Below the pieces are notes generated by a model. That model was given only the letters and a program-made list of their open reading frames with translations. It was not told the DNA's origin and searched no databases. The position numbers and the translations under genes were made by a program. This document shows positions 17,922 to 34,412 of a DNA stretch of 39,175 bases, one piece after another. This DNA comes from a virus. Position 1 is the stretch's first letter. Every line of letters starts with the position of its first letter. The stretch covers positions 1 through 39,175 of the IMG/VR virus record IMGVR_UViG_3300032053_000200; one strand, written 5' to 3'.

Positions 17922-19700
17922 TTAATCATTGATTACTTTTAAAATCTGACCACTCCAATATCTATATTCAGAAAATATTTTATCTCTTAAATTTACTATT
18001 GGAGGAGGCACCAATTCTGCAAATAATACATAATTATTATTTTCTATTGTTCTAAATGATAATAATTTATCTTCATTTTCAAGTTCTCCTACATTAAATT
18101 TATCACTTACAGCAATACGTCCACCCATTATTTCTTCTTCAAAAAATAACTGCAAAGTTATTTCAGATTTTTTACCTTTGTCTGTAATAATTACTATCGG
18201 TTCAAAATCAGGTCTACAATATTCAAATATTTCTGTTAAATTCCAAGAATCAAGAAGTCCAAATCCTGGTATTAATGCATTATTATCATTCATTAATGCT
18301 TGCATTTGTGCTTTTACAACATCGTCTGAAGCATGAAATTCTTTTCCTTCAACTCTAAATTTATTACTTATACAAAATATGATAACTGGAACATTCCACA
18401 TTTGATTAATTCGCATTACATTATTCATTTGAGCAGTTGTAAATGGTTCAAAAGTTGTAATGTAAACTGCACATGATTTTTCACCCTTTGCTACATCTTT
18501 AATTTTAGGTTCAAATGCTTTTTGAATAGAAGCAATAACTCTCATGTTATCGACATCTGTAGGATTCCTTTTCTTAAATGCATCAACAACTATATTTTCT
18601 GAGCGAGCTTCATTAAGAAATTCAGATTTTTCAAATTTATTAATATAATTATTTATAAGATAAACATAAGAATTAAATTTTTCTACAATTGTTTCAGTTA
18701 ATAATCCAAAGGGTTTTTTATTTTTTCTAAACGATGATAAAATAACTTTAAATAATGCTTCATAAATTGGTGCCGTTTTAATCCACTTTAAGCTTTCTTC
18801 GTTAGTAATAAATTTTTTGTTTAATTTACCATTATAACCGAATTGGGGCGGCATTAAATATTTTGCTTCTATGGTTTCATTAACAGATTTAATTTCACAA
18901 TATTTATTAAATATATCACATACAATATTTATATACATTTCATCTTTTGTTTCAGCTTCTAATATAGGAATATTATAATTATTCATAAATGAATTTAAAT
19001 CAGTAATTATAATATCATAAAAATCGCGTGATTCATTTTCTTTTTCATACGCTTCATTAAGAAGTTCAAATTCATATGATATAATTTGTGCTAATTTATC
19101 TTTTGATTTAATAACTATTCCTTCTATAATATCTTCTTTTGAATATGAATTGTGTAATGTCTTTTCAATCATTTTTGAAAATGTCATAGTTTCACCGTCA
19201 TATTGCTTTGTATCGTATGCAATTAAAAGTTTTTTCTGCTCTTCATCTAATTTACCTTCAAATAAAACAGGTGGTCTTCCCATATATAAAACAGCAGCCC
19301 AATCTTTTACTATATTGTAAGAATAAGATTCATTTGCATAATCTTTACTTTTTTTAGTTACATCTGTTAAAATATATTTTGGTAATTTTGAATATGGAAT
19401 TCTTAAAGGCCTTTCTACTGGAGTATAATATATGCCAAAAAATAAACCTTCAGAAATATTTGCATCTTTTGTTATGATAGGAATTTCAAGAATAGCATTT
19501 TCATAAATATCGGTAAGTGTACGATCAATTAAAGTAATAGGAGTATTATCTTTTTTGTAAAAGATTAAATGATCTCCTTTTTTTTCAAATATTAATCTGA
19601 AAGTATCAATTTTTTCAGTTATTACAACTTCTTCATTTAGTAGAGAATCTACGTACTTTTTCCCTTTTTTTTCCAGGGTTTTTTTAAGCGTATTTAACAT
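17922..19700 (-). CDS. Fusion of a ligase-like nucleotidyltransferase and a NMNAT-fold-like nucleotidyltransferase
   Basis: A 592-residue protein. The N-terminal half looks like a polynucleotide ligase-type domain: motif I as EKIDTFR (Lys30, Asp32, with Thr in place of the usual Gly) and motif IV as EGIVIK. Residues about 365-592 look like a cytidylyltransferase-fold domain with a degenerate signature (YITTFEPFTTAQMNNVMRI). The two halves are separated by KSEFLNEAR, a head-protease-like site (Glu364), and another LNE lies at residue 23. The gene at 32217-34412 has the same two domain types in the opposite order. Ligase-type domains transfer a nucleotide to nucleic acid ends; whether this one is active is uncertain because of the Thr. 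It sits inside a tag-gene operon. Confidence 0.7.
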   Translation of the reverse strand: MLNTLKKTLEKKGKKYVDSLLNEEVVITEKIDTFRLIFEKKGDHLIFYKKDNTPITLIDRTLTDIYENAILEIPIITKDANISEGLFFGIYYTPVERPLRIPYSKLPKYILTDVTKKSKDYANESYSYNIVKDWAAVLYMGRPPVLFEGKLDEEQKKLLIAYDTKQYDGETMTFSKMIEKTLHNSYSKEDIIEGIVIKSKDKLAQIISYEFELLNEAYEKENESRDFYDIIITDLNSFMNNYNIPILEAETKDEMYINIVCDIFNKYCEIKSVNETIEAKYLMPPQFGYNGKLNKKFITNEESLKWIKTAPIYEALFKVILSSFRKNKKPFGLLTETIVEKFNSYVYLINNYINKFEKSEFLNEARSENIVVDAFKKRNPTDVDNMRVIASIQKAFEPKIKDVAKGEKSCAVYITTFEPFTTAQMNNVMRINQMWNVPVIIFCISNKFRVEGKEFHASDDVVKAQMQALMNDNNALIPGFGLLDSWNLTEIFEYCRPDFEPIVIITDKGKKSEITLQLFFEEEIMGGRIAVSDKFNVGELENEDKLLSFRTIENNNYVLFAELVPPPIVNLRDKIFSEYRYWSGQILKVIND

Positions 19701-19704
19701 AATT

Positions 19705-20601
19705 TTATTTTTTTAATTTATTTATTTTGGGATCCATAACTATTAGAACCTCTTCATTATTTACTAATTTACGTATCATGTGCCGAGATGTTATTAATGG
19801 ATTTTTTTTTGCATTTATTCGTATTTTTACATCTTTAGGCAATTTATTTACTTCTTTTATATTATTATTACTAATATTAAATGTTCCTCTTATTTCTTTT
19901 GGCATATAATCTAAATTTTTTAATTTATTATTAGCACAACTGAAATATCCTTTACAGATCTCTGGGCATCCCCTTAAAGATGTTAATTTATTATTTTTAA
20001 GATCACAATAACCTTCAACACTATTAAATTTAATATAATCTGGAAAATTACCTTTCATCATACCATCTAAATCTAAAGATTCAAATATATCTATAGTAAG
20101 ATCATCATTAATTCTGTATTTTGCTTCATTAATATTCATTTTTTTAAGCCAGTTTTTTATTAATACGAGTGAACCTACACCCATATCACGAATAGGATCT
20201 GAATCTTCAGTAAATTTTTCATTTACAGATTCTTTTATTCCGTATATTGGTATTTTAAAAGTATTTCTTAAAACGTTTATTATTTTATCTCTATGTTCTT
20301 TTTTATACAATATTTTTCCATGTTTGTATTCTTCTTTACACATTTTGTTAAAAGCTTCTGGAATAGACATATTTTCATGTAATATAAACTTAAAAAAATA
20401 TGAAAGACATAAAGCATAAGCCTCTGCATATTTTTCTTCTGGAAAATATTTATATCGAATCCTATATGTTTCGTTGTTAGTATATCTAAAAAAATCTTTT
20501 GCAATTTGTTTATAGTATTTCATTCCAATGCCCATATCATATACGGGATCGCTATTTTCAATAAACTTTTCATTAATAATATACTCTTTTACCAATTTCA
20601 C
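19705..20601 (-). CDS. Double tag protein: helical 'EAH' module plus leucine-rich-like module
   Basis: It begins at a GTG (20599-20601): MKLVKEYIINEKFIENSDP then VYDMGIG, with one extra Ile in the leader. Module 1 (residues about 12-128) is helical and resembles the 'EAH' family (PEEKYAEAYALCLSYFFKFIL). A second tag at about residue 126 (SVNEKFTEDSDPIRDMGVG) starts module 2, an LRR-like domain with LTSLRGCPEICKGYFSC and LKNLDYMPKEIRGTFNIS. A cut after Glu128 would give two proteins. It is followed after 4 bases by the ligase/nucleotidyltransferase fusion. Confidence 0.82.
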   Translation of the reverse strand: MKLVKEYIINEKFIENSDPVYDMGIGMKYYKQIAKDFFRYTNNETYRIRYKYFPEEKYAEAYALCLSYFFKFILHENMSIPEAFNKMCKEEYKHGKILYKKEHRDKIINVLRNTFKIPIYGIKESVNEKFTEDSDPIRDMGVGSLVLIKNWLKKMNINEAKYRINDDLTIDIFESLDLDGMMKGNFPDYIKFNSVEGYCDLKNNKLTSLRGCPEICKGYFSCANNKLKNLDYMPKEIRGTFNISNNNIKEVNKLPKDVKIRINAKKNPLITSRHMIRKLVNNEEVLIVMDPKINKLKK

Positions 20602-20610
20602 GTATTATTA

Positions 20611-20630
20611 GATTTATTTTATATATTCAA
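20611..20630 (-). promoter_or_regulatory. Candidate late promoter
   Basis: Minus strand TTGAATATATAAAATAAATC, ending about 10 bases before the GTG start at 20599-20601. A near-perfect copy of the recurrent motif, placed just after a terminator. Confidence 0.55.
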
Positions 20631-20632
20631 TA

Positions 20633-20654
20633 AAAAAGGGAGCTTTTAGCTCCC
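20633..20654 (-). terminator. Intrinsic terminator
   Basis: Stem GGGAGCT / AGCTCCC with a TTT loop, followed in the minus direction by T6. It ends the transcript of the gene at 20689-21246. Confidence 0.85.
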
Positions 20655-20688
20655 TGATTTTAGGTATTTAAGTATTTAAGTATAAAGA

Positions 20689-21246
20689 TTATTTAGTTCT
20701 TACTTTTATAATATATTTCTTTTTAGTCTCTATAGTTTGAGCACTTTCTTTTAGTTCTTTATTAATATTTTCAGAAAATTCATTTAAAGATTTTATAAAA
20801 GATTCAGATATTATACTTGTTATCATATCAGCAGATAGTATATCTTTAAGATTTGAAGCATTAATTTGTTTATACATTTCATCGATAATATCATAAAGTT
20901 TAAATTTAAGATTTGTTTGTCTTAAAGTTTCACTAATAACTGCATATGATTTATCTTTAAGAAAATTCTTTTTCTGTACGGCGGTAGAATTTTCATTTAA
21001 ACTCATTGAACGTTTTAGAAGAAACTTTTCTCCTTTTTCATTTAAGCCTTCTTCATCACTCCAATAATGATTAAGCTCAGTTAAAAAAGAAACTTGAGAT
21101 TCATCATTAAGATCATGAATAGATGTAAGTCCATAATGTTCAAGCATTGCGCCATAGATTTTTCTAAAGCTATCTAATACCATATTTTCTTGTAAGATCT
21201 CTGCTTCACTGACTTTTTCTTTATAAATGGCCGAAAATTTCTTCAT
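20689..21246 (-). CDS. Helical head protein, probable core or internal protein
   Basis: A 185-residue helical protein starting MKKFSAIYKEKVSEAEILQE, where KEKVSE resembles a leader cut after Glu. Further V/L-x-E sites occur within it (EEGLNEKGEKF, MSLNENST). The remainder is charged helix (FLKDKSYAVISETLRQTNLKF, then ISESFIKSLNEFSENINKELKES). The layout recalls prohead core proteins, but I cannot assign a family. A candidate late promoter precedes it and a strong terminator follows. Confidence 0.65.
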   Translation of the reverse strand: MKKFSAIYKEKVSEAEILQENMVLDSFRKIYGAMLEHYGLTSIHDLNDESQVSFLTELNHYWSDEEGLNEKGEKFLLKRSMSLNENSTAVQKKNFLKDKSYAVISETLRQTNLKFKLYDIIDEMYKQINASNLKDILSADMITSIISESFIKSLNEFSENINKELKESAQTIETKKKYIIKVRTK

Positions 21247-21254
21247 AATGTAAG

Positions 21255-21274
21255 ATTTTATTTTATATATTCAT
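21255..21274 (-). promoter_or_regulatory. Candidate late promoter
   Basis: Minus strand ATGAATATATAAAATAAAAT, about 9 bases upstream of the ATG at 21244-21246. One of the best matches to the recurrent motif. Confidence 0.55.
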
Positions 21275-21300
21275 GACATTTTGCGATACTTTTAAAAAAA

Positions 21301-21951
21301 TTATTTTTTCTTAAAATTAGAGGGTACATAATATCCTTTATTATTAAGATCTTGAATATTTTTAATTAATTCTTCTGTTTTCTGTTTATTAGCTTCTTTA
21401 TTTTCAAATGAAAAATGAATAATAGGATCCTCATGAGAAGAATAATGTATATTTTTTAAAGATTCAATATATTTTTCAATAGCTTCTGGCGAATTATTTT
21501 TATAAAACCATTTATTAAATTTATTAATTTCTTTTTCTTTTTTCTTATATAGTATTCTTTCTTCTGAAGATAATTTTAATATTTTACTTATTTTTTTTCG
21601 AGTTTCATCAGATGCTTTTAATGTTGGAATAGAATTAATTAATTCTTTTGCATATGTATAATCTCTTAAAGAAAGTTTTAATTTTTTCTTTTTATTAAAT
21701 ACCATTAAAAAGAAAGCTTGCGCGATTTTTAAATTTCCTTTATAAATATAGGTTAACAATTTATGTATTATGTAATGTTCCTTCGGAATTAATAAAACTA
21801 AATTTGTAATATCATCACTTCCATTTAAACATCTGGGAACAATATGATGATTTTCATAGTATACGTAATTTTTATTATTTCTAGATAACTTTTGTCTATT
21901 TTGTAATCTAGCATTTTCTATAATTTTATCATGAATTTTCTGATAGTTCAT
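21301..21951 (-). CDS. HNH homing endonuclease
   Basis: A 216-residue protein starting MNYQKIHDKIIENARLQNR. The HNH core is YYENHHIVPRCLNGSDDITNLVLL, then KEHYIIHKLL. It is a paralogue of the endonuclease at 26995-27816 (same YEKHHI, NLVLL and HKLLTYIYKG segments) but lacks that protein's NUMOD3-type repeats. Such enzymes cut DNA to spread themselves. It lies between the helical head protein and the plus-strand cargo gene, with no disrupted gene obvious at its edges. Confidence 0.85.
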   Translation of the reverse strand: MNYQKIHDKIIENARLQNRQKLSRNNKNYVYYENHHIVPRCLNGSDDITNLVLLIPKEHYIIHKLLTYIYKGNLKIAQAFFLMVFNKKKKLKLSLRDYTYAKELINSIPTLKASDETRKKISKILKLSSEERILYKKKEKEINKFNKWFYKNNSPEAIEKYIESLKNIHYSSHEDPIIHFSFENKEANKQKTEELIKNIQDLNNKGYYVPSNFKKK

Positions 21952-22115
21952 ATAATTATATATTTTTATTCAAATTAAATATAATAATAATTTTTTATTT
22001 TTTAACAAAAATAATGTTAATGTTCTGTTAAAAATTAAAAAAAAGTAAAAATTGGCATAGTATTTTTATATTATATTAAAACGAAATATTTTTTAACTTA
22101 AATAAATATAATAAA
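21952..22115 (+). promoter_or_regulatory. Divergent intergenic region with likely promoter of the secreted-protein gene
   Basis: 164 very AT-rich bases between divergent genes. It contains TTAACA/TGTTAA repeats (around 22000-22030) and a possible Bacteroidota-type promoter, TTGGC at 22052-22056 with TATATTAAA at about 22072-22080. The assignment is tentative because the base composition makes chance matches common. Confidence 0.3.
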
Positions 22116-23069
22116 ATGAAAAAGCTATTAATTATCTTATCAATGTTATTTTTTTCTATTGTAATGATAGGACAAAATACAGAAATGTCTAACTATGAAA
22201 AATATGTTCTTCAAAAAGAACAAGATACTTTAAATAAAAATCAAATTCAATATGTTACAGACACTATTGTAAAAACTGATACAGTTATTAAATATATAGT
22301 AGCCGATAACACTTATAATGATCAATTTTCTTATAGTGGATCAATAAATCAATTTTATCACGGAGGATTTAATTATTGGTATTATAATAATCCTTGGTAT
22401 TATGATTATTATTATGGATATCCTTATTATGGATATAATTATCCTTATTGGGGGTTTGGATTTTATTTAGGATTTACTTATCCTTGGTATAGTGGTTATT
22501 ATAATTATCCATATTATCCTTATTATTATAGTGGTGGAGGTTCATATTATGGAAATAGCCATCATACATATGCATCTGGATATTATAATGAAGGAAATGG
22601 AATTCCTAAACATAATATGCAATCTCAAAATAGAAATTCTTTTAGCGGAAACAATATTCAGAATAAAAGATCTTATAATGCAAATTCACGAGCATATACG
22701 CCTTCTTATATTACTCCGAGACAATCTTCAAGAGTACAATATAATAATAGTCGTGCTCAGAGTACACCTAGACAATCTGCTCAAACAAATAATATGAGAA
22801 ATTCTTATCCTACGCAATCACGAAATTCAGTTTCAACACAAAGAAACTCAACGCAACGAAGTTATAGCGTTCCTTCACGAAGTTCAAATAATTATTCTTC
22901 TCCAAGAAGTTATGAAAATAGCAGAAGTACTGCAAGTTTTAGTGGAAGATCTTCTTATAGTAATGGATCATCTTATAATAGTGGATCATCTGGAGTAAGT
23001 AGAAGTTCAGGAAGTTCAGGCGGATCTTCTTACAGTAGCGGAGGAAGTTCAAGTGGACATAGAAAATAA
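22116..23069 (+). CDS. Secreted Tyr-rich/Ser-rich protein (cargo or moron gene)
   Basis: A 317-residue protein with a clear signal peptide (MKKLLIILSMLFFSIVMIGQ). A short region TDTIVKTDTVIKYIV follows, then a Tyr/Gly/Pro-rich stretch (residues about 80-150, for example YYYGYPYYGYNYPYWGFGF) and a Ser/Arg/Asn-rich tail ending in SSGGSS-type repeats. It is probably exported to the periplasm or outer surface. The style is that of Bacteroidota low-complexity envelope proteins. It stands alone on the plus strand with its own upstream region and terminator, as morons do. A role in altering the host surface is a guess; no fold is recognised. Confidence 0.8.
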   Translation: MKKLLIILSMLFFSIVMIGQNTEMSNYEKYVLQKEQDTLNKNQIQYVTDTIVKTDTVIKYIVADNTYNDQFSYSGSINQFYHGGFNYWYYNNPWYYDYYYGYPYYGYNYPYWGFGFYLGFTYPWYSGYYNYPYYPYYYSGGGSYYGNSHHTYASGYYNEGNGIPKHNMQSQNRNSFSGNNIQNKRSYNANSRAYTPSYITPRQSSRVQYNNSRAQSTPRQSAQTNNMRNSYPTQSRNSVSTQRNSTQRSYSVPSRSSNNYSSPRSYENSRSTASFSGRSSYSNGSSYNSGSSGVSRSSGSSGGSSYSSGGSSSGHRK

Positions 23070-23070
23070 C

Positions 23071-23096
23071 AAAAAGGAGACGCTGTCTCCTTTTTT
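23071..23096 (+). terminator. Intrinsic terminator
   Basis: Stem GGAGAC / GTCTCC with a GCT loop, followed by T6 and preceded by A5. It ends the secreted-protein gene and may also serve the converging tag gene at 23098. Confidence 0.88.
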
Positions 23097-23097
23097 A

Positions 23098-24294
23098 TTA
23101 ATAAAAATTAAAGAAAGGATCTACATCTATATTAAAATATTTTTTTAATACATTAGCTATATTTACTCTGTCTTCAACAATATCAGGGCGATTCCCCCAA
23201 TAGTTTTCATTATCGCATGATTTCTGAAACTCTTTTTGTAAATTACTATATCCCATATAATCTATTCGTTTAAATAAATCATAAAGAACATATGCATATC
23301 CTTGATGATTTTTATCTCCAAAATAAGTTAAACTTATTTTATCAATATTTCCATTCATTTCTTTTAAAAATATTCGGGCGTGTTGTCCAGGAGATAATCC
23401 TATTCCTAAATCTTTAATAGGATCTGATTCAGGAGTAAATTTTTCATTTACTTTAGTTTTGTTGTTATAAGAATTTTCATATCTTGTTGCAGCTTTAATT
23501 CTTTTATTTGTAAGTTTGTAATCAACCGCAATATGTTTTAATTCAATAGAGTCAAAAGAATTTTTTAGTTTAGCGCCGTTTCTTATAAAAAATTTAGCAA
23601 TATTTAATTTGCCATCCCACACAGCATATCTTAACGCATAACCATTTTTAAATAAACTTTCTTTATTTTTACTTTTATCTACTATGAATTTAATATAACT
23701 TAAAGGCGCTCCTTTATCAGTTAATAACTCTAAAAGATATGGTTCATTTTGTAATATTTGATCCTCTCTATATTCACTATTTGCAGTCGCTAGAAATTTA
23801 GTAACCCAATGACGTATTTTATTCATCGTTCCTATTCCTAAATCCTGTATAGGATCAGATTCTTCAGTAAACTTTTCATTTAAAGATTCGTTTATTTCAT
23901 ATCTAGGATTATCTTTAAATTGAGGCTGTTTCCAATATTCTATTTTAGCTTTTGATATTTTAAAACCTTTTCGCATTAATGCATTATGAAATGCATTATT
24001 AATATCCCAAGTAAAAAAATAATCATTATTATTAAGAGTAATATATTTATGAACATAATTTTCTACTTTACTCCATACAGAATAATCTTTAAAAAATCCA
24101 GTATCTTTTATATTATATAGAATATCTTCTGGGATAGATCCGCCAAATATTGCTGGTAATATATCCCACACAAATTGTAATAATTCTTTTTCTGTTTTAA
24201 AATTTCTTTTCACGTTTACACCTATTCCCATATCATGAACAGGATCTGATTCATCAGTAAATTTCTCGTTTATATATTCTTTAACCAATTTCAT
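23098..24294 (-). CDS. Triple tag polyprotein ('RNF' + ankyrin-like + 'EAH' modules)
   Basis: A 398-residue protein built of three tag modules. Tag 1 is N-terminal (MKLVKEYINEKF, TDESDPVHDMGIG) and leads an 'RNF' module (KRNFKTEKELLQFVWDILP). Tag 2 at about residue 138 (SLNEKFTEESDPIQDLGIG) leads an ankyrin-like module (ALRYAVWDGKLNIAKFFIRN). Tag 3 at about residue 282 (KVNEKFTPESDPIKDLGIG) leads an 'EAH'-type helical module (GYAYVLYDLFKRIDYMG). Cuts after Glu10, Glu140 and Glu284 would give three proteins of about 115-145 residues, similar in size to the single-tag genes. It ends against the terminator of the plus-strand cargo gene. Confidence 0.85.
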   Translation of the reverse strand: MKLVKEYINEKFTDESDPVHDMGIGVNVKRNFKTEKELLQFVWDILPAIFGGSIPEDILYNIKDTGFFKDYSVWSKVENYVHKYITLNNNDYFFTWDINNAFHNALMRKGFKISKAKIEYWKQPQFKDNPRYEINESLNEKFTEESDPIQDLGIGTMNKIRHWVTKFLATANSEYREDQILQNEPYLLELLTDKGAPLSYIKFIVDKSKNKESLFKNGYALRYAVWDGKLNIAKFFIRNGAKLKNSFDSIELKHIAVDYKLTNKRIKAATRYENSYNNKTKVNEKFTPESDPIKDLGIGLSPGQHARIFLKEMNGNIDKISLTYFGDKNHQGYAYVLYDLFKRIDYMGYSNLQKEFQKSCDNENYWGNRPDIVEDRVNIANVLKKYFNIDVDPFFNFY

Positions 24295-24297
24295 TAT

Positions 24298-24630: not shown

Positions 24631-24631
24631 A

Positions 24632-25414: not shown

Positions 25415-25420
25415 AACACA

Positions 25421-25440
25421 ATAATTTATTTTATATATTT
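25421..25440 (-). promoter_or_regulatory. Candidate late promoter
   Basis: Minus strand AAATATATAAAATAAATTAT, about 7 bases before the ATG at 25412-25414, and directly after a terminator hairpin. Confidence 0.5.
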
Positions 25441-25475: not shown

Positions 25476-27038
25476 TTATAATTTTATTTTAAATCTTTTA
25501 TACGGAAACCCTTTATCATTATAAATTCTTTCTCGTTCTCTAGCGTGGCGCATGAGATAGTTTACTTTTTGATATTTATGACTTCCATATTCAAAATTAT
25601 CAGAAAAATCTATAACTGTAATTACTTCTTTGCCTTCCATCAATCTCATGCCTCTTCCAAGCATTTGTCTTACTTGGTATTCTGATTTCGAACTTTCTAT
25701 AATAAATATATTGTGCAAATTTAAAATATTAATTCCTTCTGCAAAAACTCCGATACTAGCAACAATAATTATATTTTCTTCATCTTCCATTTGTTTTTTA
25801 AAATAATCTCTATTTTCAGCCTTAGTTCCTCCATCTATGTAATAAACTATTTTATCTGTATTTTCTTTGAGCCAATTAAAAATATTTTTTCCATAATCAT
25901 TTTTAATATCTGAAAATAAAACAAGAGAATTTTTTGTAGATTTAGAAATTGTTTGACAAATATATAATAATCTTTTATGATTTGATCTTATTAAATCTTT
26001 TTCAAGATTTAATAATTTTACTCCATCTTTCTGATCTGCGCTTACATTTCTAAGATTATATAATTTCTTTTTAACATCTTCTTCAAGATAATCCATTTCA
26101 ATACCTACAACTTTTACGGGAGTTGCAAAATTTGCAGCAATTAAATCTGCAGATTTTACTACATATACACATGGTCCTAAATATGATTGAACAGTAAAAG
26201 AATCAATTGAACCTTCTTGTGGAAGAGTTCCTGTCATTCCTATATTATATTTTGAATTAAATGATTTTATAATAATATTTTTAATTGAAGTTGTTTTTGC
26301 ATGATGAACTTCATCTATAAATACTGCATCAAATTTTGAAAAGTATTCTAGATCTTTCTTAACTAAAGATTGAAAGGTACCAAATACTATATTAGCTTGG
26401 TCATTATCTTCCTTCTTAGAGCTTCCGAATACACACTGTGACTTCCAGATTGGTTTCTTATTACATTCTTCCTCGTACAAATAAAATTCTTCTTCTGTTT
26501 GAGTTACTAAACTAATGCTAGGCACTACATATAACATTCTGTTTATTTCTTTTTTTTCTAATAAATAGCGAAAAAGTAAAAATGCCATAAGAGTTTTACC
26601 GCCAGAAGTAGATATTTCTTCAATACAAAATTTATATTTTAATACACAAGATACACCTTCAACTTGATAATCACGTGGTTGTTTTTCTGATTCTTCAAAA
26701 TAAGTATTAACCCATTCTATAAAAACGGATTCATCATAATCTTTGTTAAAAAGATATTCTACACCTTCTATTTCAAGAGGAAAGAAAAATTGTTTAGAAA
26801 GTTTTTTAATTTCATCCCAGAGTCCTATAGGAATTCTCAACCATTTATCGACAAAAGAAATTTCAAAACTTTTAGGTTGATAGCTGCTTCTATTACGTAT
26901 AGCGCCCCAATTTATAATTTTTTTTGTAAAACTGTGCTGTAATTGTTCAATTTCTAAAGCAGTTCCATCTACAATGATTAAAAATCTTTTATCTTCACTT
27001 ACTTTTAGTTTCATAATATCCTTTATCATAATCCCCAT
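25476..27038 (-). CDS. uvsW: UvsW-like SF2 DNA helicase
   Basis: A 520-residue superfamily 2 helicase. Visible motifs are RDYQ (about residue 122), STSGGKT (Walker A, 143-149), IDEVHH (DEAH-type box, 241-246), GMTGTLP, then VASIGVFAEGINI and QMLGRGMRL (motif VI). The N-terminal domain before the motor and the overall order match T4 UvsW, which unwinds R-loops and recombination intermediates and helps switch from origin- to recombination-dependent replication. The start is uncertain: the ATG at 27036-27038 or 27012-27014 (MKLKVSEDKRF). Both overlap the end of the upstream HNH gene, which suggests that gene invaded the leader. Confidence 0.9.
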   Translation of the reverse strand: MGIMIKDIMKLKVSEDKRFLIIVDGTALEIEQLQHSFTKKIINWGAIRNRSSYQPKSFEISFVDKWLRIPIGLWDEIKKLSKQFFFPLEIEGVEYLFNKDYDESVFIEWVNTYFEESEKQPRDYQVEGVSCVLKYKFCIEEISTSGGKTLMAFLLFRYLLEKKEINRMLYVVPSISLVTQTEEEFYLYEEECNKKPIWKSQCVFGSSKKEDNDQANIVFGTFQSLVKKDLEYFSKFDAVFIDEVHHAKTTSIKNIIIKSFNSKYNIGMTGTLPQEGSIDSFTVQSYLGPCVYVVKSADLIAANFATPVKVVGIEMDYLEEDVKKKLYNLRNVSADQKDGVKLLNLEKDLIRSNHKRLLYICQTISKSTKNSLVLFSDIKNDYGKNIFNWLKENTDKIVYYIDGGTKAENRDYFKKQMEDEENIIIVASIGVFAEGINILNLHNIFIIESSKSEYQVRQMLGRGMRLMEGKEVITVIDFSDNFEYGSHKYQKVNYLMRHARERERIYNDKGFPYKRFKIKL

Positions 27039-27816
27039 TTATAATGCGTATTAATAAAGAACGATTATATTGAGGATATTTTAATTGTATTTCTTTAAAC
27101 GAAATAATATTACTATCATTTTTAATATTTTCTATTGTTTCTAGCGTAATTAAGTATTTTCTCTTTTTTTCTTTTAATATTTGAATAGTTTTTTTTGTAT
27201 GATGTTTTCCAAAAAATGAATTGTTTTCTTCGTGACGATCCGGCATATTTTGTTTTTGTTTTTGTTTAACTTCTGGCCGTTGCATAGCTAATTTTGTGTT
27301 TATCTTAATTTTTTCAATTGTTTCTGTAGAAAGAGAAATTCCTTTTCTAAGAGAAGGCTTTCCATACATTGGATTTTTTTCTCCTGTTCGTGAATGTATT
27401 CCTTTATTCCACGGGATATGCCCCCTTTTTCTTTGTATAGTTTCTTCGGAATCTTTTCTTCCTTTTTTAATCTTCTTACATTTTTCTATTGTTTCTTTAG
27501 ATACGGGCGTATTTCTATGTAATTCTGTTGTGTATGCATAATCTCTTGATGTTTTAGCACATTTATTAGTTTTTCCATACGTCATTCGATGAAATGCACA
27601 AACTATACTCCTACTTCCTTTATAGATATATGTTAATAATTTATGACAAATATAATGTTCTCTCGCCGTCAATAAAACTAAATTTTCTTTATCATTATTA
27701 CCGTTCAAACATTTTGGAAAAATGTGATGTTTTTCATAATATTTACCTTTGCCTTTAATTCTATTTTCAAATTTTGCCTTTTGAATTATTGCGTCATATA
27801 TCTTTTGATGATTCAT
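26995..27816 (-). CDS. HNH homing endonuclease with NUMOD3-type repeats
   Basis: A 273-residue protein starting MNHQKIYDAIIQKAKFENR. The HNH core is YYEKHHIFPKCLNGNNDKENLVLL, with REHYICHKLL following. Two NUMOD3-type DNA-binding motifs follow (GEKNPMYGKPSLRKG and NNSFFGKHHTKKT), then a helix-turn-helix-like end. It is paralogous to 21301-21951 and overlaps the start of uvsW by 20-44 bases. Homing endonucleases commonly sit next to their cut site in a replication gene. Confidence 0.88.
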   Translation of the reverse strand: MNHQKIYDAIIQKAKFENRIKGKGKYYEKHHIFPKCLNGNNDKENLVLLTAREHYICHKLLTYIYKGSRSIVCAFHRMTYGKTNKCAKTSRDYAYTTELHRNTPVSKETIEKCKKIKKGRKDSEETIQRKRGHIPWNKGIHSRTGEKNPMYGKPSLRKGISLSTETIEKIKINTKLAMQRPEVKQKQKQNMPDRHEENNSFFGKHHTKKTIQILKEKKRKYLITLETIENIKNDSNIISFKEIQLKYPQYNRSLLIRIINGDYDKGYYETKSK

Positions 27817-27819
27817 TTT

Positions 27820-27833
27820 TATTTTATAAATTC
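27820..27833 (-). promoter_or_regulatory. Candidate promoter, variant of recurrent motif
   Basis: Minus strand TGAATTTATAAAAT lies about 4 bases from the HNH start at 27814-27816. It differs from the better copies by one base (TTTATA for TATATA). Confidence 0.3.
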
Positions 27834-27855
27834 ACACTAAATTCATTCATAATGA

Positions 27856-28326: not shown

Positions 28327-28609
28327 TTTTATGTTTTTTATAAAATGTAATTAATTCAAATATACATTTACTTTCTCCTGTACTTGAAAACATATGTTTT
28401 TCTTCAAGATATTCTACCATTTGATCCAGAGATAAAGTATTCCAATTAAAAAATCCAACCTTTAAAGATTCTTCATTTTTTTCTAATTGTTCTTTAGTTA
28501 ATTTCATATTTTTTGTTTCTTGTTTTTCAGTTAATATTTCTGTTACGGTTTTTCCACATTTAATACATTGCGCGCCGTCTAATTCAAACTTATGTTTACA
28601 ATTTTTCAT
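28313..28609 (-). CDS. Small zinc-ribbon-like protein
   Basis: A 98-residue protein starting MKNCKHKFELDGAQCIKCGK. Cys4, His6, Cys15 and Cys18 could bind one zinc ion. The remainder is charged helix (KLTKEQLEKNEESLKVGFF, then LDQMVEYLEEKHMF). I recognise no family. It lies in the replication/recombination operon, between the uvsY-like gene and a small unknown. Confidence 0.6.
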   Translation of the reverse strand: MKNCKHKFELDGAQCIKCGKTVTEILTEKQETKNMKLTKEQLEKNEESLKVGFFNWNTLSLDQMVEYLEEKHMFSSTGESKCIFELITFYKKHKNDKI

Positions 28610-28611
28610 AT

Positions 28612-28779
28612 TTAAAATAATTTAGTGCTCGAATCAATTATTTTATTTTTCTTTTTATGTTCTATTATCTTTATATTTTTTAGTTTTATACGAGTATCAA
28701 GTTTCATATTTACATTAAATTCTGAAATATTATTTTGATCTAAAAAATTAAATTCTAATGAAGTTGTTAGTTTTTCCAT
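28612..28779 (-). CDS. Small protein of unknown function, 55 aa
   Basis: A frame from the ATG at 28777-28779 to the TAA at 28612-28614, starting MEKLTTSLEFNFLDQNNISE and ending in a Lys-rich stretch. It fits exactly between two genes on the same strand (0 and 2 base gaps), which is the main support. No motif is recognised. Confidence 0.55.
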   Translation of the reverse strand: MEKLTTSLEFNFLDQNNISEFNVNMKLDTRIKLKNIKIIEHKKKNKIIDSSTKLF

Positions 28780-29181
28780 TTATTTACTTATATTATATAC
28801 ATTTAAAGCTTCTCTGTAATAGCTATTTATTGATTTTAAAATATATTTAAAAGCTTTATAAGAAAAATTATATTTATATTTTCTTGCTACTTTTAATCCT
28901 TCAACCCAGGCTTGGTATTCTATTAACATTTGATCGTTGTTTACCATTTTTACAAAACTTTCTGTAATTAATGTATGCCCAATTTCATGAAAAAACGCGG
29001 CCCTTTTTAATTCTAAATCATCATATATTCCCAATATAATATCTTCATCTCCAATAATATATGCATTATTTTTTAGATCTCTTTTATTAATTTCAAATTT
29101 TTTAGAAAATCTTATGATATTATTTTTTGTTATGCTGGTGACTTTTAAATTATAATCTCTTGCAATTTCAGTAATTTTCAT
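28780..29181 (-). CDS. HExxH metallopeptidase, ImmA/IrrE-like
   Basis: A 133-residue protein with the zinc protease motif FFHEIGHTLI (His65, Glu66, His69). The N-terminal part (IIRFSKKFEINKRDL, then AYIIGDEDIILGIYDDLE) and an acidic residue after the motif (EYQAWVEG, with Glu and Trp) fit the ImmA/IrrE family of small metallopeptidases. In bacteria these cleave repressors. Here the target is unknown: a host repressor or stress regulator is possible. It sits next to the primase gene. Confidence 0.72.
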   Translation of the reverse strand: MKITEIARDYNLKVTSITKNNIIRFSKKFEINKRDLKNNAYIIGDEDIILGIYDDLELKRAAFFHEIGHTLITESFVKMVNNDQMLIEYQAWVEGLKVARKYKYNFSYKAFKYILKSINSYYREALNVYNISK

Positions 29182-29197
29182 AACATTATCCTTTTAT

Positions 29198-30310
29198 TTA
29201 TATATCGATAATGTCTAGCGGATTATTTGAAAAATATTGTTCAAATCTTGGTATAGGTTTATTATTATGTCGTAAATAAATCATTAAGTCATTTAAATCC
29301 CATTTTATTCTGAACGGAAGTTCTAAATCATTTTTTAGTTTTTCCCACAAAAATACTTCTTCATCATTGTTTATTTTTTCTATACTTTTATTTTTTCCAT
29401 CTTTATCATCATCATAAAAATACCTAACATTTAAATCTAATGGAAATTTTTTATGTGCTCCTGCATTTGCTATAGAATTTTTAAATAAAAAAGAATCTAA
29501 TGGTCCTTCAAACAAGGTAACAGATTTAGCATAATTTACTAAACAAATATTAAATAATTGTGATAATGCGTTTATTTCATCAGGAATTTCTTTTGGATTT
29601 TTTTTCATTAACTCATATATTTTAGTTAATGTATATGTTAAATACTTACTTTCTCTTTTTTTAAATGTTCTTTTTTGAATTCCTAAAATTTTTCCTGTAT
29701 GTGTTAAATTCAATATTATAAGATGATTTAATCTTGGATTATACAAAAATTTTTGAGCATCATATTGTAATCTATTTATTAACCATGGCCATATGGATGA
29801 TCCTTTAGCTTCTTTTAAATCAAAATATTTTATAAATTCTTGACGATCTATTGCATATTTATCTATAGAATCTATATCTAGAAAAAGTGACATATCATAT
29901 TTAATTGCATCTGTATGAGAAGAAAAATCTTCTACACCTTTTGCTATATAATTTATAATACTTAAATTTAAATTAATTTTGTGTTCAGAGAAAAATTGAT
30001 CTATTCTTTTTGATATTCCACAATTATGACATTTATAAAAATGTGCATATTTACCTAATAAAATAAAATTTCCTCGTTTTTTATAATTATTGTGCATACT
30101 ATCTCCGCAATATGTACACGCAAAATTTATACGATCTTTATATACTCGTATCCTTTGTTTTCCTATATTTCCTGGAAATCTATTATTTAGGATAGGTTGT
30201 AATAAAGAAACAAGTTGTTCTTTATATTCTTCTTCGGATACAACATCATCAATATTTGAAAGAGATGAGTTTAAACTCATCTCTTTCAATGTATCAATAT
30301 TAATTGACAT
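29198..30310 (-). CDS. 61: DNA primase, T4 gp61-like
   Basis: A 370-residue primase. The N-terminal zinc-binding domain is visible as ACTYCGDSM and YKCHNCGIS. The TOPRIM catalytic part includes TLFEGPLDSFLF (the Glu motif) and VRYFYDDDKDGK (the Asp-rich metal site). It makes RNA primers for lagging-strand synthesis with the gp41 helicase, which is not in the window. The neighbouring gp32 gene is immediately upstream, overlapping or abutting by a few bases. Confidence 0.88.
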   Translation of the reverse strand: MSINIDTLKEMSLNSSLSNIDDVVSEEEYKEQLVSLLQPILNNRFPGNIGKQRIRVYKDRINFACTYCGDSMHNNYKKRGNFILLGKYAHFYKCHNCGISKRIDQFFSEHKINLNLSIINYIAKGVEDFSSHTDAIKYDMSLFLDIDSIDKYAIDRQEFIKYFDLKEAKGSSIWPWLINRLQYDAQKFLYNPRLNHLIILNLTHTGKILGIQKRTFKKRESKYLTYTLTKIYELMKKNPKEIPDEINALSQLFNICLVNYAKSVTLFEGPLDSFLFKNSIANAGAHKKFPLDLNVRYFYDDDKDGKNKSIEKINNDEEVFLWEKLKNDLELPFRIKWDLNDLMIYLRHNNKPIPRFEQYFSNNPLDIIDI

Positions 30311-30311
30311 T

Positions 30312-31310
30312 TTAAATGCTATTTAAAGCTGCATCTAAATCTCCGCTGATACCAAAATCATTAGAAGTGTTTAGGTCGGGAAGATTAAGATCGGGAAGAG
30401 AAGAAAGATTTCCAAGATTTAAATCATCTATTGATAAATCAGATAATGTAATTCCTGATTTTTGAGAAGAGGCAACAGGAGTATTACTCGATTTGCCAAC
30501 AGTAGGAATAGAATTTCTTACATCTGCATATGCAGATGAAGGAGTTTGACCGGTTACAGCCAAAATTACTTGATTAACATAATCATGTGTTTCTTGATCC
30601 CATTCTTTAAATCCATATTTATTAATATCTGGACTATTTTCTTTTAAGAAAGCAAATACTGTTTCTCTTGGAGTTTTATCATTAATTGGAAGTAATTTTC
30701 CAGTTTTTTGATCAGGAAGTAATAAAGGAATTCTTTTATCAAGAAATCTTGATTGATCATAATTATTAAAGCCAGCAACTTTAGTTACTACTATTGCAAA
30801 AGCTTTTCCATCAAGTAAGTCAAACGGTTCATGAGCTTCACCAATAACTGGTTTCTTTTCGGCTTCTAATTTTTCAAAAATCTTTTTACCAAATTTCCAA
30901 ATCATTAGTTTTCCTTCTACATCTTTATTTTGGTCATCTTTAATAACTTGAATAATGGCTGTAAAAGAATGTCTCCTGCTAAATATTTCAGATTTTTTTT
31001 GTTCTTGAATTGATTCGCTTTTACGAAGTTTAAAGAACATATCTTGAAGAACAGAGGGCTTACCAATAGATGAAGGACAATCAATAAATCTTCCACGATT
31101 TGTTACAGGATCTACTAGCCAGCTTACCCATTTTTCAAAAATGGAATGCTGTGGGTCTTGCCAATTTGCTACAAATCTTATTACTGATTTATAGACTCCG
31201 TTTTGCCCGCGATCTGCAGTTGGACTATATTCAGTTAAATTTTTAATTTCATTTCCGACAATTTCAACCTTTGGGTGAAAAAGCGCGTTTAAATCATAAG
31301 TGTTTTCCAT
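30312..31310 (-). CDS. 32: Single-stranded DNA-binding protein, T4 gp32-like
   Basis: A 332-residue protein with the features of gp32: an OB-fold core (residues about 35-230; YKSVIRFVANWQDPQHSIFEKWVSW, with RRHSFTAIIQVIKD) and a flexible acidic C-terminal tail (DLSIDDLNLGNLSSLPDLN, ending DLDAALNSI) that in T4 recruits replication partners. The zinc-binding Cys cluster of T4 gp32 is not evident. It coats single-stranded DNA in replication and recombination. The leader carries UUAAA-type repeats like the T4 gene 32 operator. Confidence 0.88.
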   Translation of the reverse strand: MENTYDLNALFHPKVEIVGNEIKNLTEYSPTADRGQNGVYKSVIRFVANWQDPQHSIFEKWVSWLVDPVTNRGRFIDCPSSIGKPSVLQDMFFKLRKSESIQEQKKSEIFSRRHSFTAIIQVIKDDQNKDVEGKLMIWKFGKKIFEKLEAEKKPVIGEAHEPFDLLDGKAFAIVVTKVAGFNNYDQSRFLDKRIPLLLPDQKTGKLLPINDKTPRETVFAFLKENSPDINKYGFKEWDQETHDYVNQVILAVTGQTPSSAYADVRNSIPTVGKSSNTPVASSQKSGITLSDLSIDDLNLGNLSSLPDLNLPDLNTSNDFGISGDLDAALNSI

Positions 31311-31320
31311 AATCTTTAAG

Positions 31321-31360
31321 TTTAATTTAGTTTAATTTAATTTAATTTAATTTAGTTTAT
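31321..31360 (-). promoter_or_regulatory. UUAAA pentamer array in the gp32 leader (candidate autoregulatory operator)
   Basis: On the mRNA strand eight consecutive pentamers of the form NUAAA, five of them UUAAA, end 11 bases before the gp32 start codon. In T4, gp32 represses its own translation by binding UUAAA-type repeats in the unstructured leader next to a pseudoknot. I do not see a clear pseudoknot here by eye. The position and sequence fit autogenous control. Confidence 0.65.
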
Positions 31361-31367
31361 TAGATAT

Positions 31368-32078
31368 TTAGTTTTTAAATTTACATTTATCTCCATGATA
31401 TTTATCATACCATGATAAAGCTATAAGTTTTGAGCAATGTTCACCTTTTTTCTTTTCTTGTTTTTTTCTATTTTTAGCTGCTATTTTTAAATTTTTTAAA
31501 TGTTCTTCAGAATGTTTTTTTCCTTTTCGAGAATTAGATAATTTTAAATATAATTCAATTTCTTTTTGATGTGCAATTATTTCTCCATATTTTTCGATCC
31601 AGATTTCATATACAGTTTTTCCATACATCCCATTTTTATTACCACTAGAAATTCCCATATGGGAATTTCTATTTTTTATTTTAGACTCTTCAGAAGCAGG
31701 AATATTTCTATTCCATGCAATTTGCCCCATATGAGATTCTTTTAGATGTTTTCTATGTTCTTCTGAAAAATGTGTTATAGTATTTTTGTACATTCCGCCT
31801 GTTGGACTTATATTATAACCCATTGGTGATATTGTGTTAAATTGTTTAATATATTTTTCTTGAGCGTCAAACGCTTCTTTTCTGGTCAAAAACCATTCTA
31901 AAATCTCTTTAAAAAACAGATATTCTCCATATATACTTACTGCATGTCGAAATGCATTTCCACTTCCTAAATAATAATATTTTTCCTTTGGATTTATTGT
32001 ATGATCGCCTACGTATTGTTTTCCATTTATCAGATTAGTGGTTACGTAGACATAATGAATATGTTGTTTTTCTTGCAT
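31368..32078 (-). CDS. GIY-YIG homing endonuclease
   Basis: A 236-residue protein. The GIY-YIG core is present as HYVYVTTNLINGKQYVGDHT, with FRHAVSIYGEYLFFKEIL and EAFDAQEKYIKQF (catalytic Glu region) following. NUMOD3-like motifs come next (SSGNKNGMYGKT, SRKGKKHSEEHLKN), so DNA recognition is by the C-terminal half. It lies directly upstream of gp32 and just before the UUAAA leader, a common target site for phage homing endonucleases. A weak candidate promoter is at 32121-32140. Confidence 0.88.
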   Translation of the reverse strand: MQEKQHIHYVYVTTNLINGKQYVGDHTINPKEKYYYLGSGNAFRHAVSIYGEYLFFKEILEWFLTRKEAFDAQEKYIKQFNTISPMGYNISPTGGMYKNTITHFSEEHRKHLKESHMGQIAWNRNIPASEESKIKNRNSHMGISSGNKNGMYGKTVYEIWIEKYGEIIAHQKEIELYLKLSNSRKGKKHSEEHLKNLKIAAKNRKKQEKKKGEHCSKLIALSWYDKYHGDKCKFKN

Positions 32079-32120
32079 TTAGCCTTTTAGATATTTAGTA
32101 TTTTAGCGCTTTAGTACTCT

Positions 32121-32140
32121 TTATTAGATTATATATTCAT
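32121..32140 (-). promoter_or_regulatory. Candidate promoter, variant of recurrent motif
   Basis: Minus strand ATGAATATATAATCTAATAA, about 45 bases before the endonuclease start at 32076-32078. It keeps GAATATATAA but loses the downstream AATAAA. The remaining bases of this 138-base gap (32079-32216) show no gene. Confidence 0.3.
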
Positions 32141-32216
32141 GAAAATACATAAAGTTTTATATATATAATTAAAATTCTGTTAAAGTTATAAGTATTACTG
32201 GGTATACACATAAATA

Positions 32217-34412
32217 CTATTTTTTGCTCCATCCTTTAATAATATTGGGGCTAAAATTAGCGTATGAAAATTCATTCCTATCTACAAGTTTTACAACATT
32301 TCCGTGTATATCAGAAACGGCAAAGCCTTCTTGAGATGTAGATTTAAATTCACCAGTAATAGTTTTAAGATATGTTTCAAACTTTCCTATGTTATTTAAT
32401 TTTTTAATAAATACTTGTTTAATATCGGTGATCATGATTATTACTTCAATTACTTTTTCAAGTATATCTGATAATTCTTTTATTTTTTGTACAATATCTT
32501 TACTTTTAATAATTAAATCTTTTTTTCCCTTAATAGATTTCTTTTTTTCTGATTCTTTTTTAAATCTATTTGATACGAAATTAATAAATTTATAAACATA
32601 ATCCTGTGTATCAATTATTGTTTGGGAATTTCTAATTAAAAGGTTTTGAAATATCATGAATAATGAAATTATTTCTTTATCATTTATTAATTTATTATAA
32701 TTTTCAGATGAAATTAAACTATGTTTTACTAAATTTTTTACAGCATCTAATTGTGATTTTATTGAATCACTTTCTTCTTTTGTTAAAGTAATTATTCCAG
32801 CTAAAGATTTAATGTATGGATCTGTCATAAAAACCTTTGGATTTTTTTGTAATTCATCAATATTAACATTGTAACTAGCACTTACATTAGTCAACGAAGT
32901 TCCTGTATATTTTGTATGCCAAACTACTCCAATATCAGCTTTTGAAATTTCTTTTCCTATATTTGAATCTTTATTAATTTTATAAATTATTGTATTGGGA
33001 TGAAAACTATAAGTTTTTTCATCTTCTATAAGAGTATCAGAGTCAAATAAAAAATCACCTTGCCAAATTTCATTTTCAGGAATTTTTAAAGATGTAATAT
33101 ATTTTAACATTAATTTTAATTTATATGTAAGATCTTTTCTATCTCCATAAAATTTTTCTATATCGTTATCAGAAAACATTATTTTTCTATTTTTTGCAAA
33201 TAATGCTTTAATAGCAAGACCTGGCTTTTTTAATTCTGAAAATTTAGACCAAACAAATACACTGGGGGCTCCGTCAAATTTAATTGAAAGTTTAATATTA
33301 TCTTTGTTTGTTTCTCCTTTAAGTTGTTTATAGAGATTTTCAAACGTATATATTACCCAATCTATTGCTTCTTTTCCTTTAAAAACAAGATCTTCAGCAT
33401 GAGTCATATGAATATTAGTCTGAGAAGTAATAGATTCATCTAAAGCCAAAAAATTATTAGGATGTTTAATATCTATATGTAAATCATGTAAAATTTCTAC
33501 AACTTTATAAATATCAACTTTAGTGAAAAGTTTTTTAAGAATTTTGTTATATGTTTTTTGAATTCCGGCTTGGGAAAAATTTTGATCATAATCTACAAGT
33601 TCTTTAAAAAAAACATATATTAAATGAGCTTCATTATAAAACGCAGGATCATAAAAATATCTAATTGAATTTTGTACACTTGTATTATGTCCTAGAATTT
33701 GACGTTCTTTTTTCCAAAATTCAATTATACCAATGCCCATATCCTGTACAGGATCTGATTCATCAGAAAATTTTTCATTTATACTTTCTGATATAACTAT
33801 TTGTGTTGTGTCCCATATTTTTTTAATAATATTTTCTGCATACCCTGGATAATTTGTTCTAAAATTATTATAATCATCATTTAAAATATCTTGCCTTAAA
33901 ATTGATGCAGAAATAGGCATTCCATCATATTCATCAGTTCTATCTTTATATAGAAGTGGTTTAGTATCTACTAACAATTCTACTACTTCTGCATTTTTAA
34001 GCTTAGTATTAACGTATCTTCCATTAGGACTAAAATCTCTAACAAATTTTTCTACTCTATCATAATCTTTTCCCTTTTTAACTCCTCCCATAGCGTATAT
34101 ACCCGGTTTAGCAGTTTCCATATACTTATATGCTGTTAATATTGGCGATGGATATATTGTAGCTTCAATTGATACATTGTGCAATTTATGTAATAATAAT
34201 TTCGCCACTTCGATAGCTTCTTTTTGAGTAACTCCGTTACGAACGCCTGGTCCTATAAGAACTTTAACTTCTTTAACATCTGGTTGATTTGCATAACGAT
34301 TAATGAGATTTACATGAGCAGCATGCATAGGTTTATACGACCCGGGCAATAATACAATTATATCTTTATTAAAATTTTCGTTAATCCAATATGTATAAGG
34401 AATCAGTTTCAT
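32217..34412 (-). CDS. Nucleotidyltransferase + tag module + ligase-like fusion
   Basis: A 731-residue protein. Leader MKLIPYTYWINE is followed by a cytidylyltransferase/NMNAT-fold domain: LLPGSYKPMHAAHVNLI (residues 22-37, the GxFxPxHxGH-type motif) and MPISASILRQDI, the ISxTxxR-type motif. A tag at about residue 211 (SINEKFSDESDPVQDMGIG) leads an 'EAH' helical module. Residues about 340-731 resemble a ligase-type domain: IKFDGAPSVFVW (motif I, Lys378, Asp380, Gly381) and motifs IV and V as QEGFAV and VKLVDRNEFSYANF. This C-terminal part resembles a DUF6267-like phage family. Predicted cuts after Glu12 and Glu213 would free the enzymes. The gene at 17922-19700 shows the same two domain types in reverse order. 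Confidence 0.82.
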   Translation of the reverse strand: MKLIPYTYWINENFNKDIIVLLPGSYKPMHAAHVNLINRYANQPDVKEVKVLIGPGVRNGVTQKEAIEVAKLLLHKLHNVSIEATIYPSPILTAYKYMETAKPGIYAMGGVKKGKDYDRVEKFVRDFSPNGRYVNTKLKNAEVVELLVDTKPLLYKDRTDEYDGMPISASILRQDILNDDYNNFRTNYPGYAENIIKKIWDTTQIVISESINEKFSDESDPVQDMGIGIIEFWKKERQILGHNTSVQNSIRYFYDPAFYNEAHLIYVFFKELVDYDQNFSQAGIQKTYNKILKKLFTKVDIYKVVEILHDLHIDIKHPNNFLALDESITSQTNIHMTHAEDLVFKGKEAIDWVIYTFENLYKQLKGETNKDNIKLSIKFDGAPSVFVWSKFSELKKPGLAIKALFAKNRKIMFSDNDIEKFYGDRKDLTYKLKLMLKYITSLKIPENEIWQGDFLFDSDTLIEDEKTYSFHPNTIIYKINKDSNIGKEISKADIGVVWHTKYTGTSLTNVSASYNVNIDELQKNPKVFMTDPYIKSLAGIITLTKEESDSIKSQLDAVKNLVKHSLISSENYNKLINDKEIISLFMIFQNLLIRNSQTIIDTQDYVYKFINFVSNRFKKESEKKKSIKGKKDLIIKSKDIVQKIKELSDILEKVIEVIIMITDIKQVFIKKLNNIGKFETYLKTITGEFKSTSQEGFAVSDIHGNVVKLVDRNEFSYANFSPNIIKGWSKK

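What the first reader, a model, noticed from the sequence alone, without database searches (positions are those of the whole stretch)
17922..34412. Two fusions of a ligase-like domain and a NMNAT-fold domain in opposite orders, both with head-protease sites
At 17922-19700 the ligase-like domain (EKIDTFR, EGIVIK) comes first and the degenerate nucleotidyltransferase last, separated by EFLNE. At 32217-34412 the nucleotidyltransferase (GSYKPMHAAH, ISAS) comes first, then a tag module, then the ligase-like domain (IKFDGAPS, QEGFAV). One keeps intact motifs where the other has changes (KIDT, FEPFTTAQ). The pair may act together on nucleic acid ends or on NAD/RNA-cap chemistry, and may be carried in the head. 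The function is open.
Basis: partly seen in the sequence, partly recalled or inferred. Interest (0 to 1): 0.75.

Follow-up and report, generated by a model that had tools for sequence, protein, structure and literature searches.

The report
Head-packaged ligase–adenylyltransferase fusion enzymes
A giant T4-like phage carries two proteins that each join an RNA-ligase-like domain to an NAD/CoA-synthesis-type adenylyltransferase in opposite orders, and comparison with hundreds of phages shows a widespread enzyme pair, probably packed inside the phage head, whose substrate is still unknown.

Summary
In detail: both genes lie on the minus strand. P0001 (17922-19700, 592 aa) is modelled as an RNA-ligase fold (residues 1-218, Z about 14 to Naegleria RNA ligase and T4 Rnl2) plus an NMNAT/PPAT fold (407-576, Z 14.5 to NadD). 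P0002 (32217-34412, 731 aa) is a PPAT/NMNAT fold (Z 14.3), a repeated 'INEKFSDESDP' tag module, then Pfam DUF6267 (E 1e-69).

DUF6267, of 'unknown function', keeps ligase-type motifs I, IV and V in 114/114 relatives, including Lys378; its fold was not matched separately. A homologous adenylyltransferase lies on the same strand, usually next door or fused, in 107 of 124 DUF6267 loci, normally after DUF6267; the window's clade reverses this. Both families start with T4-type capsid-targeting sites (112/122, 104/118). The adenylyltransferase is reported in cyanophage virions. The P0001 family is partly degenerate: motif-I Lys is often lost, and the window's clade lost the HxGH site.

Best reading: head-packaged, protease-processed nucleotidyltransferase pairs ejected with the DNA, probably acting on nucleic-acid ends. 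Carriage is well supported; the substrate is a guess. New variant of a known kind: the pair exists in cyanophages; the enzymatic reading of DUF6267 and the repeated re-pairing appear undescribed in the papers searched.

The parts
17922..19700 (-). P0001, 592 aa: RNA-ligase-fold domain, linker with cleavage-type site, degenerate NMNAT/PPAT-fold domain
19047..19700 (-). P0001 residues 1-218, RNA-ligase fold (T4 Rnl2 / Naegleria Rnl / T4 Rnl1 / tRNA ligase)
   Evidence: Foldseek 2hvq E 8.3e-7; VIA Z 14.3, 183 aligned, rmsd 3.2 to 6vt1_A
19596..19616 (-). P0001 motif I EKIDTFR (Lys30; usual Gly replaced by Thr)
   Evidence: Glu29 invariant, Lys30 lost in many relatives
19107..19127 (-). P0001 motif IV IEGIVIK (192-198)
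18600..18620 (-). P0001 interdomain linker site FLNE/ARS (361-367), candidate head-maturation-protease site
   Evidence: [LI][NSDH]E in 13/13 near relatives' linkers against 2.0 in shuffles; low pLDDT 359-393
17973..18482 (-). P0001 residues 407-576, NMNAT/NadD/PPAT fold, HxGH replaced (TTFEPFTTAQ 415-424)
   Evidence: VIA Z 14.5, 158 aligned, rmsd 3.0 to 5vir_A; intact site in distant relatives
32217..34412 (-). P0002, 731 aa: PPAT/NMNAT-fold domain, tag module, DUF6267
34371..34388 (-). P0002 N-terminal capsid-targeting-type site WINE/NF (9-14)
   Evidence: family enrichment
33780..34367 (-). P0002 residues 16-211, PPAT/NMNAT fold with HAAH (24-33) and ISAS (167-170)
   Evidence: VIA Z 14.3, 157 aligned, rmsd 2.6 to 5h16_A; TIGR01510 E 7e-5
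33459..33797 (-). P0002 tag module (206-318): SINE/KFSDESDPVQDMGIG plus a small helical domain
   Evidence: absent from the homologous fusion in G004
32220..33458 (-). P0002 DUF6267 domain (319-731), predicted covalent nucleotidyltransferase
   Evidence: PF19782 E 1.1e-69; pLDDT mostly above 90; motif conservation
33279..33281 (-). Codon of Lys378, motif I (IKFDGAPS), candidate covalent lysine
   Evidence: Lys in 114/114 relatives
32316..32333 (-). P0002 motif IV QEGFAV (694-699), E695/G696 invariant
32280..32297 (-). P0002 motif V VVKLVD (706-711), K708 invariant

Best explanation
The two genes encode head-packaged, protease-processed nucleotidyltransferase fusions. P0002 joins a HIGH-superfamily adenylyltransferase (PPAT/NMNAT fold) to a DUF6267 domain that I predict forms a Lys378-nucleotide intermediate, as RNA/DNA ligases and capping enzymes do. 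P0001 is a second, partly degenerate arrangement: an RNA-ligase fold followed by an NMNAT-fold domain that lost its catalytic signature in this clade. Short [LI]NE sites (N-terminus, interdomain linker, tag) recruit them to the prohead core and are cut by the T4-type S77 protease; the products are ejected with the DNA and act at the start of infection. The most likely targets are nucleic-acid ends, such as RNA or tRNA broken by host defence, or phage DNA ends. Shown here by computation: folds (both P0001 domains, the first P0002 domain), motifs, family-wide association, targeting-site enrichment. Inferred: DUF6267 chemistry, cleavage, ejection. Guessed: the substrate.
For: Folds: P0001; P0002. 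DUF6267: K378, D380, G381, P383, E695, G696, K708, Q451 and D453 invariant in 114 sequences. Association: of 124 DUF6267 loci, 100 have a separate same-strand adenylyltransferase gene (97 with DUF6267 first) and 7 a fusion, in both orders. Capsid-targeting-type N-termini: DUF6267 112/122 (19.8 expected), adenylyltransferase 104/118 (37.9 expected). S77 protease and Gp23-type capsid protein in relatives G001 and G004, capsid protein site HALNE/A. Virion data: T4-GC190 cytidylyltransferase found in cyanophage virions (PMC3037559); S-CREM2 gp154 (an adenylyltransferase of this family, starting MKNFSSFLTE) and gp156 (Pol-beta-type NTase) found in virions (PMC10665884). Nucleic-acid ends: partners in neighbours or fusions include Pol-beta-type NTases, a kinase of the zeta-toxin/AAA_33 type and a third ligase-like family.
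Against: No sequence-level link of DUF6267 to known ligases: profile scores lie at or near control level and HMMER finds no ligase in Pfam or PDB. The fold searches of the P0002 model listed only the other domain. P0001 relatives often lack the motif-I lysine. P0002's own HxGH is HAAH. P0001-family proteins show no N-terminal targeting enrichment (39/89 against 38.4). The virion MS authors themselves warn that detected enzymes may be contaminants. DUF6267 itself was not found in any virion list seen here.
Confidence: 0.5

Rival explanations
1. The adenylyltransferase makes a cofactor (NAD, dephospho-CoA or similar) early in infection, for example to restore NAD depleted by host defence; the ligase-like partner is secondary or uses that cofactor.
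For: Best fold matches are PPAT, NadD and NMNAT; the S-CREM2 authors suggest NAD modulation.
Against: No nicotinamide phosphoribosyltransferase gene was noticed among the window ORFs (read by eye; not searched for). The recurrent partner is a ligase-like or Pol-beta-type NTase rather than a cofactor enzyme. The HxGH signature is altered in both window proteins.
Confidence: 0.2
2. Both are internal head proteins that reuse enzyme folds structurally; P0001 in particular is a pseudo-enzyme.
For: Motif-I lysine lost in many P0001 relatives, adenylyltransferase site lost in the window's clade and the domain absent in others.
Against: DUF6267 keeps K, DG, EG and K in 114/114 and the adenylyltransferase keeps H33, S168 and R173 in 100/100, which points to catalytic or at least ligand-binding selection.
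Confidence: 0.2
3. The pair modifies proteins rather than nucleic acids, for example AMPylation of a host protein at entry, analogous to T4 Alt ADP-ribosylation.
For: Head carriage fits the Alt precedent (T4 Alt annotation); Pol-beta NTases in polyvalent phage proteins were proposed to modify proteins (PMC5512222).
Against: RNA-ligase-fold enzymes are known for nucleic-acid or cap substrates (established family knowledge); no protein target is indicated.
Confidence: 0.1

Closest known systems
T4-GC71 (DUF6267) and T4-GC190 ('cytitidyltransferase') of T4-like cyanophages, including the S-PM2 fusion; phrog_455
   Same: Same two domain families, adjacent or fused; GC190 found in virions. phrog_455 already covers DUF6267 then adenylyltransferase in one profile; BFVD holds a 591-aa S-PM2 protein matching the model over 412 columns, rmsd 2.7.
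   Different: Usual order is DUF6267 first; the window has the adenylyltransferase first with a tag module between. Pfam and PHROGs assign no function to DUF6267.
T4 RNA ligase 2 (Rnl2) and RNA ligases of the same fold
   Same: P0001 1-218 has the same fold; motifs I and IV are recognisable in the window's clade.
   Different: Motif-I Gly is Thr; lysine not conserved across the family; fused to an NMNAT-fold domain instead of an Rnl2 C-terminal domain.
NMNAT / NadD / PPAT (HIGH superfamily)
   Same: Fold of both adenylyltransferase domains.
   Different: HxGH altered to HAAH (P0002) or lost (P0001); attached to ligase-like partners.
T4 internal head proteins and Alt (capsid-targeting sequence, gp21 protease)
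   Same: Short N-terminal [LI]xE sites; S77 protease and Gp23-type capsid in relatives.
   Different: Different enzymatic cargo; a lineage-specific repeated INEKFTDESDPIHDMGIG tag used 22 times in 39 kb.
Polyvalent phage proteins (PMC5512222)
   Same: Multi-domain enzymes thought to be injected with the DNA; the third ligase-like family sits in giant multi-domain marine phage proteins with an adenylyltransferase and a kinase-like domain.
   Different: The passages seen do not describe this pair; that paper's full domain list was not read.

Membership tests
DUF6267 (PF19782) | Pfam profile above curated cut-off | tested here: met
   236 bits, cut-off 27
Covalent (lysyl-nucleotide) nucleotidyltransferase superfamily, for P0002 DUF6267 | Motif I KxDG, motif IV EG, motif V K conserved | tested here: met
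   114/114
Covalent (lysyl-nucleotide) nucleotidyltransferase superfamily, for P0002 DUF6267 | Ligase core fold | tested here: inconclusive
   Whole-model search filled by the other domain; profile comparison at control level; no separate model could be made
Covalent (lysyl-nucleotide) nucleotidyltransferase superfamily, for P0002 DUF6267 | Lysine-nucleotide intermediate | not testable with these tools
   needs biochemistry
RNA ligase fold, for P0001 N-domain | Fold match over most of the domain | tested here: met
   Z 14.3 to 6vt1_A, 14.0 to 2hvq
RNA ligase (active enzyme), for P0001 | Motif-I lysine conserved in the family | tested here: not met
   Lys30 present in the near clade but replaced by Asp, Asn or Val in many relatives
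NMNAT/PPAT (HIGH) fold | Fold match | tested here: met
   P0001 Z 14.5, P0002 Z 14.3
Active HIGH adenylyltransferase | T/HxGH and SxSxxR-type signatures | tested here: inconclusive
   P0002: HAAH and ISASILR, so the Gly is changed; P0001: signature lost
T4-type capsid-targeted internal protein | N-terminal [LI]xE site, with S77 protease in the phage | tested here: met
   P0002 WINE at 9-12, families 112/122 and 104/118; protease found in relatives G001 and G004, the window being only a fragment. P0001 itself: linker site only
T4-type capsid-targeted internal protein | Presence in virions and cleavage | not testable with these tools
   only literature on homologues

The most novel reading that the evidence does not exclude
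Phages repeatedly pair a HIGH adenylyltransferase with a second, covalent nucleotidyltransferase from at least three ligase-like families not linked to each other by sequence (DUF6267, the P0001 family, and the family of L012 4653-5915) and load the pair in the head as an entry-stage kit. The partners might even be chemically coupled, for example a ligase that uses NAD and an NMNAT that remakes NAD from the released NMN.
Probability: 0.2. Interest if true: 0.8.

Novelty: new variant of a known kind. Interest (0 to 1): 0.55.

Why it matters
DUF6267 is a Pfam family of unknown function found in hundreds of phage contigs. A testable prediction (a Lys378-type covalent nucleotide, head carriage with the neighbouring adenylyltransferase) would assign chemistry to this family and to a cyanophage core virion protein (T4-GC190), and would add nucleotidyltransferases to the short list of enzymes that phages inject with their DNA.

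Tried and rejected
Direct Pfam/NCBIfam/PDB sequence hits for P0001: only sub-threshold RNA_ligase. DUF6267 against T4 Rnl1, Rnl2, T4 DNA ligase and the third ligase-like family by hhalign: not significant; the alignment to the third family has motif I in register, but the score is within controls. A first hhalign run used a wrong global setting; its negative results are discarded. A P0002 single-sequence search of viral contigs found nothing, so an alignment was used. A mixed alignment for P0002 misaligned the adenylyltransferase rows (A3) and was not used for folding; the first domain of P0002 was therefore folded with very few relatives and has lower confidence. No paper on DUF6267 or on the tag sequence in the held library. 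Assembly chimera rejected: related junctions occur in independent contigs (G001, G004). The VIA list for the P0002 model shows no ligase chain among its rows; this says nothing about the DUF6267 part.
Full report
Check.

P0001 (592 aa). A model from 48 related sequences (pLDDT 81) matches T4 RNA ligase 2 first in PDB (Foldseek E 8e-7). VIA-align gives Z 14.3 to Naegleria RNA ligase and 14.0 to T4 Rnl2 for residues 1-218, and Z 14.5 to NadD for 407-576. Between them lies a low-confidence linker (359-393) with FLNE/ARS. In 13 near relatives every linker holds an [LI][NSDH]E site, against 2.0 expected from shuffling; the relatives are not independent, so this is supportive only. In the wider family of 67 sequences Glu29 is conserved, but the motif-I lysine is replaced in many; the adenylyltransferase signature is intact in distant members (GRFQPFTLGH in LR756500), lost in the window's clade, and the domain is absent in others. 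P0001 is therefore best read as a partly degenerate enzyme.

P0002 (731 aa). Residues 16-211 match PPAT/NadD (Z 14.3). Residues 333-722 are DUF6267. Among 114 DUF6267 sequences the residues K378, D380, G381, P383, Q451, D453, E695, G696 and K708 are invariant. Their order and the strand pattern of the confident part of the model fit motifs I, III, IV and V of the ligase/capping superfamily. This is motif evidence: no sequence profile link was significant and the fold of that part was not matched on its own.

Association. Among 124 loci examined (a few are overlapping views of the same contigs), 100 have a separate adenylyltransferase gene on the same strand, 97 of them downstream of DUF6267, and 7 are fusions: DUF6267 first in S-PM2 and two metagenome contigs, adenylyltransferase first in the window and in G004 (three rows are views of G004). 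PHROG 455 already spans both domains. The window's clade thus reverses the usual order. In G004 the fusion has no tag; in G002 the two domains are separate overlapping genes, each with its own LNE start; in G001 and G003 the same adenylyltransferase and tag are followed by a stretch with a Pol-beta-like motif (GSAGKKDISGDIDLAL) instead of DUF6267 (motif read by eye, no Pfam hit). A third ligase-like family (L012 4653-5915; EKxDG invariant in 68 sequences) is also fused to an adenylyltransferase in Microcystis phage Mel-JY01 and lies in giant multi-domain marine phage proteins with an adenylyltransferase and, in most of those read, a kinase-like P-loop domain.

Head carriage. DUF6267 and adenylyltransferase proteins begin with sequences such as MKFVDFITE or MKSFRQYVTE; [LIFVM]xE occurs in residues 4-22 of 112/122 and 104/118 proteins, against 19.8 and 37.9 expected from internal windows. 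This resembles the T4 capsid-targeting sequence cut by gp21 (established knowledge of T4). P0001-family proteins show no such N-terminal enrichment (39/89, 38.4 expected); their site is in the linker. Relatives G001 and G004 encode an S77 prohead protease and a Gp23-type capsid protein whose N-terminus carries HALNE/AAMGG. The cyanophage homologue T4-GC190 was reported as an experimentally determined virion protein (PMC3037559). In S-CREM2, gp154 (3 peptides) and the neighbouring Pol-beta-type gp156 (6 peptides) were detected in virions (PMC10665884), with the authors' caveat about contamination.

Mechanism. Best reading: the proteins are drawn into the prohead, cut at [LI]NE sites, and ejected with the DNA; P0002 forms a lysyl-nucleotide at Lys378 and works with its adenylyltransferase domain; P0001 is a related but eroded arrangement. 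The neighbourhood of kinase, Pol-beta-type NTase and ligase-like proteins recalls RNA-repair sets described in jumbo phages (PMC7824862), which is why nucleic-acid ends are my first choice of substrate. I put head carriage at about 0.8, the covalent chemistry of DUF6267 at about 0.75 and the nucleic-acid substrate at about 0.4; the single confidence figure given is for the general scheme.

Novelty. Parts of this are known: the pair and one fusion exist in annotated cyanophages and in PHROGs. New here are the reversed order with an inserted tag, the enzymatic prediction for DUF6267, the degenerate P0001 counterpart, and the repeated pairing with three ligase-like families. I found no paper on these points in the held library, which is not exhaustive.

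Noticed in passing
window, 22 places, e.g. 16605-16676, 23398-24291, 38123-38194: The 24-residue tag of the type KLVKEYINEKFTDESDPIHDMGIG occurs 22 times, at N-termini and inside ORFs, followed by different small domains; dozens of matches to it in the 405-kb relative G001 but none in the G004 locus held (L005). It looks like an amplified, lineage-specific head-targeting tag; no held paper contains the sequence variants searched.
   Followed up: partly
window 1799-5290: A ribonucleotide-reductase-like ORF of 1163 aa seems to hold an intein (CIVGNTLIAVADGRN ... GISIKNCGEV) with an endonuclease-like stretch; read by eye only.
   Followed up: no
window 21301-21951, 26995-27816, 31368-32078, 8512-9174: Several HNH- or GIY-YIG-like homing endonuclease-like ORFs between genes; read by eye only.
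   Followed up: no
L016 1501-3402 (contig G003; same in G001): Adenylyltransferase plus tag fused to a stretch with a Pol-beta-like NTase motif in place of DUF6267, i.e. partner exchange at the same junction.
   Followed up: partly
L263, L266, L270 (marine contigs): Multi-domain proteins of about 1700 aa with a P-loop kinase-like or HD-like start, an adenylyltransferase (GRFQPFGPHH) and a third ligase-like domain, with many [LI]xE sites inside: possible head polyproteins.
   Followed up: partly
L007 2920-3975 and similar genes upstream of DUF6267: A conserved upstream gene (phrog_1462 or other unknown families) also often starts with a capsid-targeting-type peptide; some carry a TDF...SLKSG stretch that recalls PD-(D/E)xK nucleases (the nuclease resemblance is recall only).
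   Followed up: no
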